Below, one piece after another: positions 26,671 through 35,195 of a DNA stretch of 64,000 nucleotides. Numbering within the stretch: position 1 is the stretch's first letter; each line of letters begins with the position of its first letter. Origin of the DNA: Candidatus Gastranaerophilales bacterium (lineage in GTDB: Bacteria; Cyanobacteriota; Vampirovibrionia; Gastranaerophilales; Gastranaerophilaceae). The position numbers and the translations under genes are program-made. The stretch is taken from the NCBI GenBank assembly GCA_944325895.1, contig CALVCA010000002.1:1-64000 (forward strand), read 5' to 3'. The notes under the pieces were generated by a model, which saw only the letters and a list, made by a program, of their open reading frames with translations, made no database searches and was not told the origin of the DNA.

Positions 26671-26699
26671 TTGACAAAATTTGAAAAATAATATTTAAT
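26671..26699 (+). promoter_or_regulatory. Promoter of the pseudopilin locus
   Basis: TTGACA (26671-26676), a 17-nt spacer and TTTAAT (26694-26699) form a good promoter. It is followed by an AAAGGAG ribosome site (26708-26714) and an ATG at 26722. The same combination, CTTGACAAAAT...TTTAAT with a 17-nt spacer, occurs again at 27917-27945. Confidence 0.7.
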
Positions 26700-26721: not shown

Positions 26722-26781
26722 ATGAAAACTATTGAAAAATCAGCGGGTAAGATAGTCGCCCCCCCCCTGCAGAATGCTTAG
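26722..26781 (+). pseudogene. Short frame interrupted at a 9-C tract; probable original 5' end of the pseudopilin gene
   Basis: With a strong promoter and ribosome site, the ATG at 26722 opens only 19 codons (MKTIEKSAGKIVAPPLQNA) before TAG. It contains a run of nine C (26759-26767), exceptional in this AT-rich sequence. The pseudopilin frame that starts at TTG 27021 is open without any stop back to 26751, and it lies in the phase reached by adding one C (or removing two). So one more C would fuse this start to the pseudopilin gene. Either the assembly has a homopolymer error, the gene is broken, or expression is switched by slippage. Confidence 0.65.
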
Positions 26782-26899
26782 TTAGTACCTTTCGGGCTGT
26801 TTTTGGAGGACTGTTCCACTCTACACACCATTTTGGAAGAAAAAATTATTTTAATAAAATTACCAGGGCATTATGCCAAAATAATTTATTCCACACAAC

Positions 26900-27080
26900 C
26901 CGTCATCCTGAGCAAAGGTGCTACGCACGTAGACACATTAGGTTTTGTATAGCATTTAACAGTTGCAAGATCCTGAAACAAGTTCAGGATGACAGTACTA
27001 CGTACGTAGACACATTAGGTTTGCCTTCTACACGTCATCCTGAGGCTTTAGCCGAAGGATCTACGCACGTAAGTACATTT
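26900..27080 (+). repeat. Three REP-like repeat units ahead of the pseudopilin leader
   Basis: Three related units lie in tandem. Each has a GTCATCCTGAG or inverted CAGGATGAC core and a following TACG(C/T)ACGTAGACACATTAGGTTT tail (26922-26943, 26999-27022, and a diverged form from 27061). The middle unit is palindromic (ATCCTGAA...TTCAGGAT, 26970-26990). They resemble the short CGTCATCCTGAG... repeats seen in many bacterial genomes that translate as RHPE-type peptides. Here they are in frame with the pseudopilin and supply its N-terminal extension (TRHPEALAEGS). Confidence 0.65.
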
Positions 27081-27833
27081 GACAATAATCGTCGTGCCGC
27101 ATTCACGTTAGCTGAGGTTCTTATCACCCTCGGGATTATTGGTATTGTTGCGGCAATGACTATTCCGACTTTGATTAGTAATTATAATAAACGACAAACA
27201 GTTTCAAAGTTAAAACAAGCATATTCTATTTTATCTCAAACTTTGACAATGGCTCAGGTAAAAGAAGGTGATCCGACAACCTGGGATGTTGCAGGAATTT
27301 ACGGAACTCCTACAAATGATCCTAACTTCAGCCATAGAAATGCAATAACAAAATTTGCAACAAAATATTTTATTCCATATTTAAAAGTATCAAAAGATTT
27401 TGGGTATATACAGGAAGCCTCTATCAATTATGACGGTCCATACAGTCCGGTAACCAATAATTATTCAACCGGCAGAGGTACTTACAAATATAGAATTTTA
27501 TTACCGAATAATATTTTTATAAGTATAGGCATAGGCACATCCGGTTGTGTTGGTGGTACTAATCCTGATGGTTCTTGTGTTTCAACTGAATTCAGAAATA
27601 TTACTTTTCATGTCGACATAAACGGATTTAATAAACCCAATACCTTTGGAAAAGATGTTTTTTCTATGAGTTTTAATTTAAATAAACGTACACTCGAATT
27701 TACACATTACGACAGCTACGGATATGACAGGGATGACTATAGACGTATTTGTGCACAAAGCACTTCTGACAGTGTATGCGGATATTTAATTTATTTGGAC
27801 GGCTGGCAGATTAAGGATGATTATCCGTGGTGA
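27021..27833 (+). CDS. Type IV pilin-like protein (pseudopilin), 5' end uncertain
   Basis: This protein of up to 270 residues has a class-III prepilin leader: RRAA followed by FTLAEVLITLGIIGIVAAMTIP (F at residue 28), with the conserved Glu5 (FTLAE). Prepilin peptidase would cut before the Phe. The mature part has a hydrophobic N-terminal helix, a Cys-containing globular domain and a DGWQIKDDYP C-terminus typical of this lineage's pseudopilins. The nominal TTG start at 27021 has no ribosome site; the real start is probably ATG 26722, now out of frame by one base at a C9 tract. If so, the leader would be more than 100 residues long. Function may be secretion, adhesion or uptake. Confidence 0.8.
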   Translation: MPSTRHPEALAEGSTHVSTFDNNRRAAFTLAEVLITLGIIGIVAAMTIPTLISNYNKRQTVSKLKQAYSILSQTLTMAQVKEGDPTTWDVAGIYGTPTNDPNFSHRNAITKFATKYFIPYLKVSKDFGYIQEASINYDGPYSPVTNNYSTGRGTYKYRILLPNNIFISIGIGTSGCVGGTNPDGSCVSTEFRNITFHVDINGFNKPNTFGKDVFSMSFNLNKRTLEFTHYDSYGYDRDDYRRICAQSTSDSVCGYLIYLDGWQIKDDYPW

Positions 27834-32234: not shown

Positions 32235-32258
32235 GGAGTCTAAAGACTCCTTATTTTT
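32233..32258. terminator. Bidirectional terminator between ileS and the restriction gene
   Basis: AAGGAGTC-TAAA-GACTCCTT followed by ATTTTTA. The stem begins at the ileS stop and contains the stop codon of the convergent restriction endonuclease gene (32240-32242). Confidence 0.75.
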
Positions 32259-32965
32259 AATTTAAATTGCAGCATATTAGCAGTTTTTCGACCACCATCA
32301 CCGCCTTTCCGCTGCATTGTAACTTTGCCTATGTATAATGAACCTTTTGGGCTGATTACAACATCTCCTTCGCTATAATATTGCAAAAACTCATCAATGT
32401 TTTTTAACGTCCAATTTATACTGTTTTCTATTTTGTTGATAACAAGAACCCATCCCGCAGAAAATTCTCCGCGTCCTTTTATAATATCAGTCAACACTAA
32501 GGTTTTATTTTGCTTAAACCAATTAACTACATTCTCCTGCTCTTCAAAACTCATTTCATCTAAAAACATTCTTCTTGCATCTCTTGTAAACTTTTTATAT
32601 GGTGCTAATTCGCCTGTAAAATACTGTAATATTTTAAACGTATCTGAAGGGATATTCCATAATTTCTGATAGTTAACCAGCCATCTTTTATCAACTTGAT
32701 TAAAACCTGTTTTAATAGACACAAGCTTAATTTGAATATTTTCCGTATGAATTGCTTGCTTAAACTTTATTTGTACATTAACATCAGTTTTATACCCGTG
32801 AAGAATTTTTGCTTTTACAGATTGTATTTCGGATATATTATATTCCATAATCATTAACCATTGCTGTGCATCAATATCCTCTTTCCAATTATTAAATTTA
32901 GCCACAACAAATTTTTCATTTTCAAAACCGCTTTTAGCTGTTTCAGAACCTTTTAAACTATTCAT
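32240..32965 (-). CDS. Type II restriction endonuclease, HinP1I-like (predicted site GCGC)
   Basis: This 241-residue protein closely follows my recollection of R.HinP1I (247 residues, cuts G^CGC) along its whole length: GSETAKSGFENEK at the start, AQQWLMIM, SVKAKILHGYKTDVNVQI, VSIKTGFNQVDKRWL, ILQYFTGELAPYKK, RRMFLDEM, LTDIIKGRGEFSAGWVLV and MQRKGGDGGR-TANMLQFK at the end. The catalytic D...QxK variant of HinP1I appears as D61 and Q78-I-K80. The ATG overlaps the methyltransferase stop by 4 bp (ATGA), as expected for a coupled R-M pair. The gene looks intact. Specificity is inferred from homology recalled, not tested. Confidence 0.88.
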   Translation of the reverse strand: MNSLKGSETAKSGFENEKFVVAKFNNWKEDIDAQQWLMIMEYNISEIQSVKAKILHGYKTDVNVQIKFKQAIHTENIQIKLVSIKTGFNQVDKRWLVNYQKLWNIPSDTFKILQYFTGELAPYKKFTRDARRMFLDEMSFEEQENVVNWFKQNKTLVLTDIIKGRGEFSAGWVLVINKIENSINWTLKNIDEFLQYYSEGDVVISPKGSLYIGKVTMQRKGGDGGRKTANMLQFKLKIRSL

Positions 32966-33927
32966 AAAACCTCAATTAAACTCTTACAAATCATTTCTAT
33001 AACGTTCACGGTCATGGCATTACCAGCCTGAGATAATAACCTGTTGGATGGGAGCTTTTTAACTGCATACTCCTTTGGAAAACCTTGCAATAATAAAGCC
33101 TCCATTCCGCTTAATTTATGCAATTTACCATTTTTAGTATACAAAATTCCATGACGCCCTGTTCGTAATGTTGGACATTTTGTCTTATATATCCTTAAAT
33201 CACTTTGACGTGTATCTAAAATTATATAATCTGTTTTTAGAAGTTCATTTATATTATGCTTTCCTTTATTGTATTTATTCTGTAAATATTTCTGAAATGT
33301 AGGATTATCTAAAGGTAACACATTACTTTTTTCATCAATTAAAAAATTTTTCAATGATTTTATTTTAATAGGTTTCGGGAAAACAAATTCTTTGTGCGGT
33401 ATATCTTTTTTTATACCAACAAAATAAACACGTTCACGCATTTGCGGCACACCGAAATCAGAACTGTCAAGCACAGAGCAATAAACATCATAATCCAAAT
33501 TTTCCAAAGATTTAATTATAGATTTTAAAGTATTTCCATTTTCATGGTTTACCAAACCCTTTACATTTTCAAGAATAAAACAAGATACGTTTTTTTCTTT
33601 TAAAATTCTATAAATCCCGTATATAATTTGCCCTCTTGAATCACTAAATCCTGCTCTTTTTCCAACAATACTAAATGTTTGACAGGGAAATCCGGCTATC
33701 AAAATATCAAAATCAGGCAACTCATCAATATTTATACTCATCAAATCCCCTAAATTTTTCTCATTATTACCAAAAAAAAGTTTATAAGTATTATCCGCCG
33801 CCTGATCAATTTCACTATAAGCAACACATTTTAGACCATTATGACTTAAGCCTATTCTGCCACCGCCAATGCCGGCACAAAAATCCATAAAAGTTTTAAG
33901 CTTTTTTGTATTCTTCGCAATGTTCAA
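32962..33927 (-). CDS. DNA (cytosine-5) methyltransferase of the R-M pair
   Basis: This ~321-residue enzyme methylates cytosine C5 to protect the host from the partner nuclease. Motifs in order: I FMDFCAGIGGGRIGL (13-27), IV GFPCQTFS (79-86, catalytic Cys 82), VI ENVKGL, VIII QMRERVYFVGIKK, a variable target-recognition region, IX LRTGRHG-type segment, X GNAMTVNVIEM. The best start is TTG at 33927: it follows GGGGA at 7-nt spacing and overlaps the nupC stop as TTGA. A longer reading from 33963 or 33978 would lie inside nupC. Its predicted target is the same as that of the HinP1I-like endonuclease (GCGC). Confidence 0.92.
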   Translation of the reverse strand: MNIAKNTKKLKTFMDFCAGIGGGRIGLSHNGLKCVAYSEIDQAADNTYKLFFGNNEKNLGDLMSINIDELPDFDILIAGFPCQTFSIVGKRAGFSDSRGQIIYGIYRILKEKNVSCFILENVKGLVNHENGNTLKSIIKSLENLDYDVYCSVLDSSDFGVPQMRERVYFVGIKKDIPHKEFVFPKPIKIKSLKNFLIDEKSNVLPLDNPTFQKYLQNKYNKGKHNINELLKTDYIILDTRQSDLRIYKTKCPTLRTGRHGILYTKNGKLHKLSGMEALLLQGFPKEYAVKKLPSNRLLSQAGNAMTVNVIEMICKSLIEVL

Positions 33928-35195
33928 AACAAAATCCCCGCAATTGCAGCTGACATATAACATGTTAATGTCCCGCATATCAAAGCTCTAAGCCCGAGCC
34001 GTGCAAGATTTTTACGCTGATTTGGTGCCAATTCGCCAATTCCGCCTAATTGTATTGCAATTGAGCCAAAATTACCGAAACTGCACAATGCAAAACTTGC
34101 TATCAAAAAACTCTTATCTGACAAATTCTGCATCATATGAGTTAAATCTACATATGCCACCATTTCGTTTAATACAAGTTTAGTTCCCATTAAACTTCCG
34201 ACAGACGTTGCTTCACCGATAGGAACACCCATTAAAAATGCAAATATCGCAAAAATTTTGCCCAAAATCATCTTCAATGATAAATGAGCTAAATCCATAC
34301 CTATAAATGTATTTATATGCAAATATTTTACAACAAGCCCGCCAAAACCGCCTAGAAACCAATCTATTAATGCCACGAGGGCTACAAGAGCCAATATCAT
34401 TGCCGTAACATTAATTGCTACCTTCATTCCTTCAGAAGCACCAGCAGAAATTGCATCAAACACATTTGCATGAGTCCGTTTTCTTTTACTGTATTTAAAT
34501 TCAAAATTCTGACCTGTTTCGGTCGTATTAACTTCAGGATAAACTATCTTGGATATTACAAGAGCACCCGGAGCCGCCATAACAGATGAAGCAAGTAAAT
34601 ATTCCGCAGGAATACCCATACCAATATATATAGGCATTATTGCTCCGGAAATACATGCCATACTGCCTGTCATAGATGCTAAAAGTTCCGATCTGGTTAA
34701 TTTTGCCAAATAAGGTCTTATCATTATTTGGGCTACAATTTGTCCAACAAAAGCACTCGCAACATTTGATAATGCTTCTGCACCCGATACGGACATGATT
34801 TTATTCATCCCTTTGCCCAATATCGCTACTAATCTTTGCATTATACCGTAATAATATAATATATTTACCAAAATCATCATGAATATTATTGAACTTATAA
34901 GCTGTAATGCAAAAATCTGTCCGCCATTAACAAACTCCCACTTTGTATCCATCAATCCACCGAATACAAATTGTCCGCCTTCTTTTGCAAATTCAAGTAT
35001 TTTTTGTATGAATAAACCAATTGCCATAAAAAGTTTTTGACCAAGAGGGACTTTAAATACAAACACAGCGAGCAATATCTGTAATAAAAATCCTGCTCCG
35101 ACAGTCTTATAATTTATAGCTTTACGATTATTTGACATCAAAAAGGCTATAACAAATATAAATATTATCCCGAAAATTCCAAAAAATCTTTCCAT
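33924..35195 (-). CDS. nupC: Concentrative nucleoside transporter (NupC/CNT family)
   Basis: This 423-residue Na+- or H+-coupled nucleoside importer has about ten membrane segments. Signatures: GAEALSNVASAFVGQ (family G.(E/D)....N.F.G), SELLASMTGSMACISGAIMPIYIGMGIPAEYLLASSVMAAPGAL split across two helices, GASEGMKVAINVTAMILA, and FALCSFGNFGSIAIQLGGIGELAPNQR at the C-terminus. With PNP and Upp it fits nucleoside salvage. Its stop overlaps the methyltransferase start, so the R-M genes probably ride on its transcript. A strong terminator lies just upstream. Confidence 0.94.
   Translation of the reverse strand: MERFFGIFGIIFIFVIAFLMSNNRKAINYKTVGAGFLLQILLAVFVFKVPLGQKLFMAIGLFIQKILEFAKEGGQFVFGGLMDTKWEFVNGGQIFALQLISSIIFMMILVNILYYYGIMQRLVAILGKGMNKIMSVSGAEALSNVASAFVGQIVAQIMIRPYLAKLTRSELLASMTGSMACISGAIMPIYIGMGIPAEYLLASSVMAAPGALVISKIVYPEVNTTETGQNFEFKYSKRKRTHANVFDAISAGASEGMKVAINVTAMILALVALVALIDWFLGGFGGLVVKYLHINTFIGMDLAHLSLKMILGKIFAIFAFLMGVPIGEATSVGSLMGTKLVLNEMVAYVDLTHMMQNLSDKSFLIASFALCSFGNFGSIAIQLGGIGELAPNQRKNLARLGLRALICGTLTCYMSAAIAGILF

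What the first reader, a model, noticed from the sequence alone, without database searches (positions are those of the whole stretch)
26722..27120. Poly-C tract separates a good start from a pseudopilin open in exactly the +1 frame
Seen: promoter TTGACA-N17-TTTAAT, AAAGGAG and ATG 26722, then nine C (26759-26767), then a stop after 19 codons. The pseudopilin frame is open back to 26751 with no stop for about 270 bp upstream of its nominal TTG start, and it sits in the phase reached by adding one C. Such C-runs are rare in AT-rich DNA. Known: slipped-strand mispairing at poly-C tracts switches surface genes in several bacteria. Inference: this is a phase-variable pilin-like gene, or a homopolymer assembly error hiding one long gene.
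Basis: partly seen in the sequence, partly recalled or inferred. Interest (0 to 1): 0.82.

Follow-up and report, generated by a model that had tools for sequence, protein, structure and literature searches.

The report
Genome-wide poly-C/G switch on pilin genes
A run of nine C's just inside a pilin-like gene puts its start one base out of frame with the rest, and dozens of sister genes in this genome and its relatives are built the same way, so this looks like one switch in a large set of mostly-off, slippage-controlled surface-fibre genes in uncultured bacteria.

Summary
It is not isolated and not an assembly slip. The genome (1.69 Mb) holds 36 C/G tracts of 9-11, and 31 analysable loci pair an SD-ATG leader and a tract with a downstream pilin. 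Eleven further genomes in two genera bring the total to 182 loci: one base short of in-frame in 141, in frame in 28, other phase in 13. The stretch from tract to pilin is open in 158 of 164 loci tested, and OFF pilins are under purifying selection (dN/dS 0.06-0.33), so they are expressed at times. The C-run always lies on the same replication strand, whichever way the gene points (159 of 164 neighbouring tracts agree). Best explanation: replication-slippage phase variation of a large, default-OFF pilin repertoire (0.72). Main rival: RNA-level recoding at a fixed tract. The kind is known (Bifidobacterium pili, Campylobacter poly-G); the scale, the shared one-short state and the replication-strand lock look new. 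Reads were not available, so switching itself is not shown.

The parts
26671..26699 (+). sigma-70-type promoter TTGACA-N17-TTTAAT, shared by most C-run paralogues
   Evidence: sequence; same promoter upstream of most C-run copies; 15 matches of promoter + SD pattern in the genome
26708..26714 (+). Shine-Dalgarno AAAGGAG
26722..26781 (+). leader ORF MKTIEKSAGKIVAPPLQNA* (19 codons), the OFF-state product
   Evidence: conserved leader in about 20 paralogues
26742..26758 (+). conserved flank AGCGGGTAAGATAGTCG of the tract; related flanks adjoin tracts in genes of either direction
26759..26767 (+). C9 tract, the proposed slippage switch
26768..27101 (+). long open pre-leader in the pilin frame, a mosaic of a shared module (AECLVSTFRAVFGGLF..) and translated dispersed repeats (RHPE..)
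   Evidence: open; dN about equal to dS in relatives, openness kept
27102..27830 (+). type IV pilin-like protein, proposed mature part FTLAEVLITLGIIGIVAAMTIPTL.. (243 aa); cleavage site inferred

Best explanation
This is one locus of a large phase-variable (contingency) pilin repertoire. The true start is ATG 26722. The C9 tract in codons 13-16 is a replication-slippage switch: at nine C's the leader is one base out of frame with the pilin and translation stops after 19 codons (OFF); a length change of +1 (or -2) joins leader, long pre-leader and pilin into one prepilin (ON). Shown: the architecture, its recurrence, both phases among homologous loci, the openness and constraint, and the strand lock. 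Inferred: that tract length changes during growth, that prepilin peptidase removes the long pre-leader before FTLAE, that the pilins reach the surface, and that a default-OFF state in dozens of genes makes each cell show only a few pilins.
For: 31 analysable tract-pilin loci in the own genome and 151 in eleven other genomes. Both phases occur with homologous leaders, e.g. G010 MTSLNNGGGRLL (G9, off) and MTSLNNGGGATLLSRQ (G10, on). In nine g1 relatives length sets phase: 9 off (91 of 92), 10 on (11 of 12), 7 on (5 of 5). Tract-to-pilin frame open in 158 of 164 loci, 12,671 codons without a stop against 0.096 stops per codon in the other frames; only 15 of 158 have an internal SD-start. Tract-less pilins mostly have ordinary short SD-ATG leaders. 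Mature pilins of off/off pairs have dN/dS 0.06-0.33, pre-leaders dN about dS. C-run orientation agrees in 159 of 164 neighbouring tracts whatever the coding direction, lies on the C-rich strand in 31 of 34 testable own-genome tracts, and flips at the GC-skew inversion at about 145 kb in G014:C1, which points to a DNA-replication process. Lengths of 7-13 and mixed phases occur across relatives and other genera. Precedent: B. breve UCC2003 pili (PMC9187656).
Against: Tract length is unusually uniform (91 of 111 loci in nine relatives are 9 and one-short), close orthologues usually share the same state, and MutS and MutL are present in the genus, so switching may be slow. Three own-genome copies with interrupted tracts are off and cannot slip easily, yet two keep long ORFs. 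No reads or same-species genomes were available to show length heterogeneity.
Confidence: 0.72

Rival explanations
1. RNA-level recoding: the tract is fixed at one base short and the pilin is made at a low constant level by transcriptional slippage on the homopolymer or by -1 ribosomal frameshifting at C_CCC_CCC or G_GGG_GGG.
For: One-short (k=1) is the rule in two genera although the modal length differs (9 in g1, 10 in g23); the other off phase is rare among relatives. States are shared by close orthologues. MutSL present. All-C and all-G heptamers allow a -1 slip in principle.
Against: The own-genome G-run family is mostly in the other phase (G10, k=2, six loci). No stable RNA structure follows the tract (122 loci, mean z -0.12). 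Cognate tRNA-Pro(GGG) and tRNA-Gly(CCC) exist. The mRNA carries C or G according to replication strand, not function. In-frame lengths exist.
Confidence: 0.18
2. Homopolymer error or collapse in the assembly hides one continuous gene (true C10).
For: C-runs of 9-10 can be miscalled; one contig starts inside a tract (C11:1-9).
Against: Same state in independent assemblies of many species; runs of 10-12 are called elsewhere; a C10 copy is equally one-short through its flank (C6:105095); interrupted copies that cannot be miscalled as homopolymers are also one-short.
Confidence: 0.03
3. Silent-donor system: most out-of-frame copies are non-expressed cassettes for gene conversion into a few in-frame pilins, with the oriented tract and flank as the start of recombination, as the pilE guanine-quartet element is in Neisseria.
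For: Many paralogues share near-identical N-terminal parts and mosaic pre-leaders. Tract flanks are alike in both gene orientations. Locked-off interrupted copies keep ORFs.
Against: The copies keep SD and start codon, and many a promoter, which donors do not need; a tract at one frame position in nearly every copy fits a frame switch better. No recombination event was demonstrated.
Confidence: 0.06

Closest known systems
Bifidobacterium breve UCC2003 sortase-dependent pilus loci bbr_0113 and bbr_1889 (PMC9187656)
   Same: Short first ORF, G-tract, then the pilin ORF in another frame without its own start; default OFF in the annotated genome; a one-base length change fuses the ORFs; a gut commensal pilus.
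   Different: Sortase pili, not type IV pilin-like proteins; one or two loci per genome instead of dozens; there slippage was measured by maximum-depth sequencing, here it is inferred.
Campylobacter poly-G/C contingency loci (PhasomeIt, PMC6321876)
   Same: G/C runs peaking at 9 (53%) and 10 (26%), mostly inside ORFs, 5-81 phase-variable genes per strain.
   Different: [quoted passage not shown] here C or G on the coding strand follows the replication strand. Here nearly all loci are one gene family, states are biased to off (23 of 158 on; chance 1/3, p 7e-8, loci not independent), and MutSL is present.
Neisseria pilin variation (pilE/pilS, guanine-quartet element)
   Same: Many pilin paralogues and a G-rich element near the pilin gene (from memory and from titles and abstracts).
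   Different: No single expression locus is known here, the tract lies inside the reading frame, and no conversion event was shown.

Membership tests
Homopolymer-tract phase-variable (contingency) locus | G/C run of at least 8 within or beside the reading frame, more often than chance | tested here: met
Homopolymer-tract phase-variable (contingency) locus | Run length decides between truncated and full-length product | tested here: met
   9 off, 10 and 7 on in g1; 10 off, 11 on in g23
Homopolymer-tract phase-variable (contingency) locus | Both ON and OFF alleles exist among homologous loci | tested here: met
   (e.g. G010 L303 C10 on, G015 L358 C9 off, 81% identical)
Homopolymer-tract phase-variable (contingency) locus | Length heterogeneity within one strain or population | not testable with these tools
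   no reads and one genome per species
Homopolymer-tract phase-variable (contingency) locus | Switching of the phenotype | not testable with these tools
   needs culture or single-cell work
Type IV pilin-like protein (prepilin N-terminus) | Prepilin N-terminal methylation/cleavage motif and hydrophobic helix | tested here: met
   Pfam PF07963 26.5 bits over 21.2; TIGR02532 19.2 over 16.3
GspG major pseudopilin (TIGR01710) | Score over the curated cut-off | tested here: not met
   26.3 bits against 88.85
Programmed -1 ribosomal frameshift | Slippery heptamer in the zero frame | tested here: met
   GCC-CCC-CCC contains C_CCC_CCC (sequence)
Programmed -1 ribosomal frameshift | Stimulatory downstream RNA structure | tested here: not met
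   mean z -0.12 over 122 loci, 7 below -2; pseudoknots not modelled
Programmed -1 ribosomal frameshift | The same frame relation in all members | tested here: not met
   k=1 141, k=0 28, k=2 13 of 182

The most novel reading that the evidence does not exclude
The tract with its flank is a replication-oriented DNA element that has spread to the start of dozens of pilin genes in either gene direction but always with the C-run on the lagging (C-rich) strand, and selection holds the set one base short of ON, giving a default-off, fork-direction-locked pilin repertoire that uses replication slippage, or a factor bound to the element, to express few pilins per cell.
Probability: 0.3. Interest if true: 0.82.

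Novelty: new variant of a known kind. Interest (0 to 1): 0.68.

Why it matters
If true, an uncultured lineage (probably gut Gastranaerophilales; my inference) carries dozens of slippage-switched pilins and keeps almost all one base short of ON. The lock of tract orientation to the replication strand, seen in genes read in both directions, would be a natural test of how leading- and lagging-strand synthesis set slippage rate. Standard ORF finding starts these pilins at false internal codons or misses the real start, so annotations across the family are affected.

Tried and rejected
Viral-contig scans gave nothing and one chance hit in a GC-rich, phage-like contig. A missing mismatch-repair system as the cause of instability was rejected: MutS and MutL are present. 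Starved CCC/GGG codons were rejected: cognate tRNAs are present. A downstream frameshift-stimulating structure was not found. Internal initiation in the pre-leader was rejected for most loci: 143 of 158 lack an SD-start.

Full report
One search shows TTGACA-N17-TTTAAT (26671-26699), AAAGGAG, ATG 26722, nine C at 26759-26767 and a leader that ends after 19 codons. The pilin frame runs from 26751 to 27830 without a stop, needs one more base to join the leader, and encodes a prepilin-type protein (PF07963 over its cut-off; below the GspG cut-off).

It is one of many. A search of the own genome gave 49 overlapping C9 windows, i.e. 36 tracts of 9-11. Run lengths are bimodal: few runs of 6-8, then 36 of 9-11. 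Most tracts sit within about 30 codons behind an SD-ATG and in front of a FTLAEVLITL pilin. There are two sets: C-run genes (leader MKTIEIKADKIVAPP) and G-run genes (such as MNKGLKQLFRTLLGGG). Of 56 pilin-type N-termini found in 1.54 Mb, those without a tract mostly have an ordinary short leader with an in-frame SD start, often ending in G before FTLAE; those with a tract lack such a start unless the tract happens to be in frame.

The arrangement is conserved. It occurs in nine other genomes of the genus and two of another genus of the family. In 158 of 164 loci the frame from tract to pilin is open, over 12,671 codons without a stop, against 0.096 stops per codon in the other two frames. The mature pilins of pairs that are both out of frame have dN/dS 0.06-0.33, while the pre-leaders have dN close to dS. 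So the pre-leader is kept open without being kept in sequence, and the pilins are under purifying selection although the assembled tract puts them out of frame. That is expected if the genes are translated through the tract at least some of the time.

Phase. With k the number of bases to add for fusion, the 158 loci give k=1 122, k=0 23, k=2 13, and a second g23 genome gives 19, 5, 0. In the nine g1 relatives length 9 is off in 91 of 92, length 10 on in 11 of 12, length 7 on in 5 of 5. In g23 the mode is 10 and 11 is on. In the own genome the C-run set is C9 (k=1) and the G-run set mostly G10 (k=2). On-states are fewer than one third overall (23 of 158, p 7e-8; loci are related, so the figure is only indicative). 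The default state is off in each set. Orthologues above 90% identity usually share a state, and MutS and MutL are present, so switching may be slower than in Campylobacter, which as I recall lacks MutSL.

Replication strand. On nearly every contig the C-runs of neighbouring tracts point the same way, 159 of 164 pairs, although C-run and G-run genes are read in opposite directions. In the own genome 31 of 34 testable tracts have the C-run on the C-rich strand, against 0.56-0.59 for runs of 4-5. In G014:C1 the direction flips between 126 and 153 kb, where GC skew changes sign at about 145 kb; the flip on G000:C4 also goes with a change of local skew; the three flips in G037 were not checked. The immediate flank on the C strand (TCG-C9-GA in g1 relatives) is alike in C-run and G-run genes. 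This favours a process acting on DNA during replication over one acting on mRNA. That the G-rich strand is the leading strand is the usual bacterial rule and was not tested separately.

Mechanism. The best-supported reading is phase variation by replication slippage, as measured for B. breve pilus genes of the same design (PMC9187656). Recoding on RNA is the main rival because of the uniform one-short state; it is weakened by the k=2 set, the lack of downstream structure, the in-frame alleles and the DNA-strand lock. Interrupted tracts in the own genome show three copies locked off and one locked on, which is what decay of contingency loci gives.

Novelty. The library holds no paper with both Gastranaerophilales and phase variation, but the lineage itself is my inference from protein character and genome size, not a tool result. 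The kind of switch is known; the number of switched pilins, the shared one-short default and the replication-strand lock are not described in what I could search.

Noticed in passing
L025:2486-3592 (G000:C7, tract C7:12202): A C9 tract lies at the 3' end of a gene resembling an N-acetyl sugar amidotransferase, in a cluster resembling nonulosonic acid (legionaminic/pseudaminic) synthesis; possibly another phase-variable surface gene. Names are by eye from the ORF sequences.
   Followed up: partly
G000 C4:6774, C4:19675, C10:27351 (L019, L020, L028): Three near-identical copies have a G9 tract in a short upstream ORF about 220 bp before a normal MTKRFG-FTLAEV pilin start; the tract may act on an upstream leader rather than the pilin frame.
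   Followed up: partly
window 26880-27085 and other pilin pre-leaders: Dispersed repeats (TCATTCTGAGCG.., CTACGCACGTAGACA..) are inserted in the pre-leaders and read through in frame as RHSERSEES/RHPE-type peptides, reminiscent of Rickettsia palindromic elements.
   Followed up: partly
L453, L461, L467, L469 (other genera of the family): Runs of 9-13 C/G also lie in non-pilin genes, among them an acyltransferase-like membrane protein and long repetitive proteins; C9 runs occur in 40 of 45 family genomes, some with hundreds of matches.
   Followed up: partly
window 32240-33978 (-): A cytosine DNA methyltransferase-like ORF (338 aa) followed by a 241-aa ORF, possibly a restriction-modification pair.
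   Followed up: no
L040:1642-1651 (G000:C41): A C10 tract that is not at a pilin start; no gene assigned.
   Followed up: no
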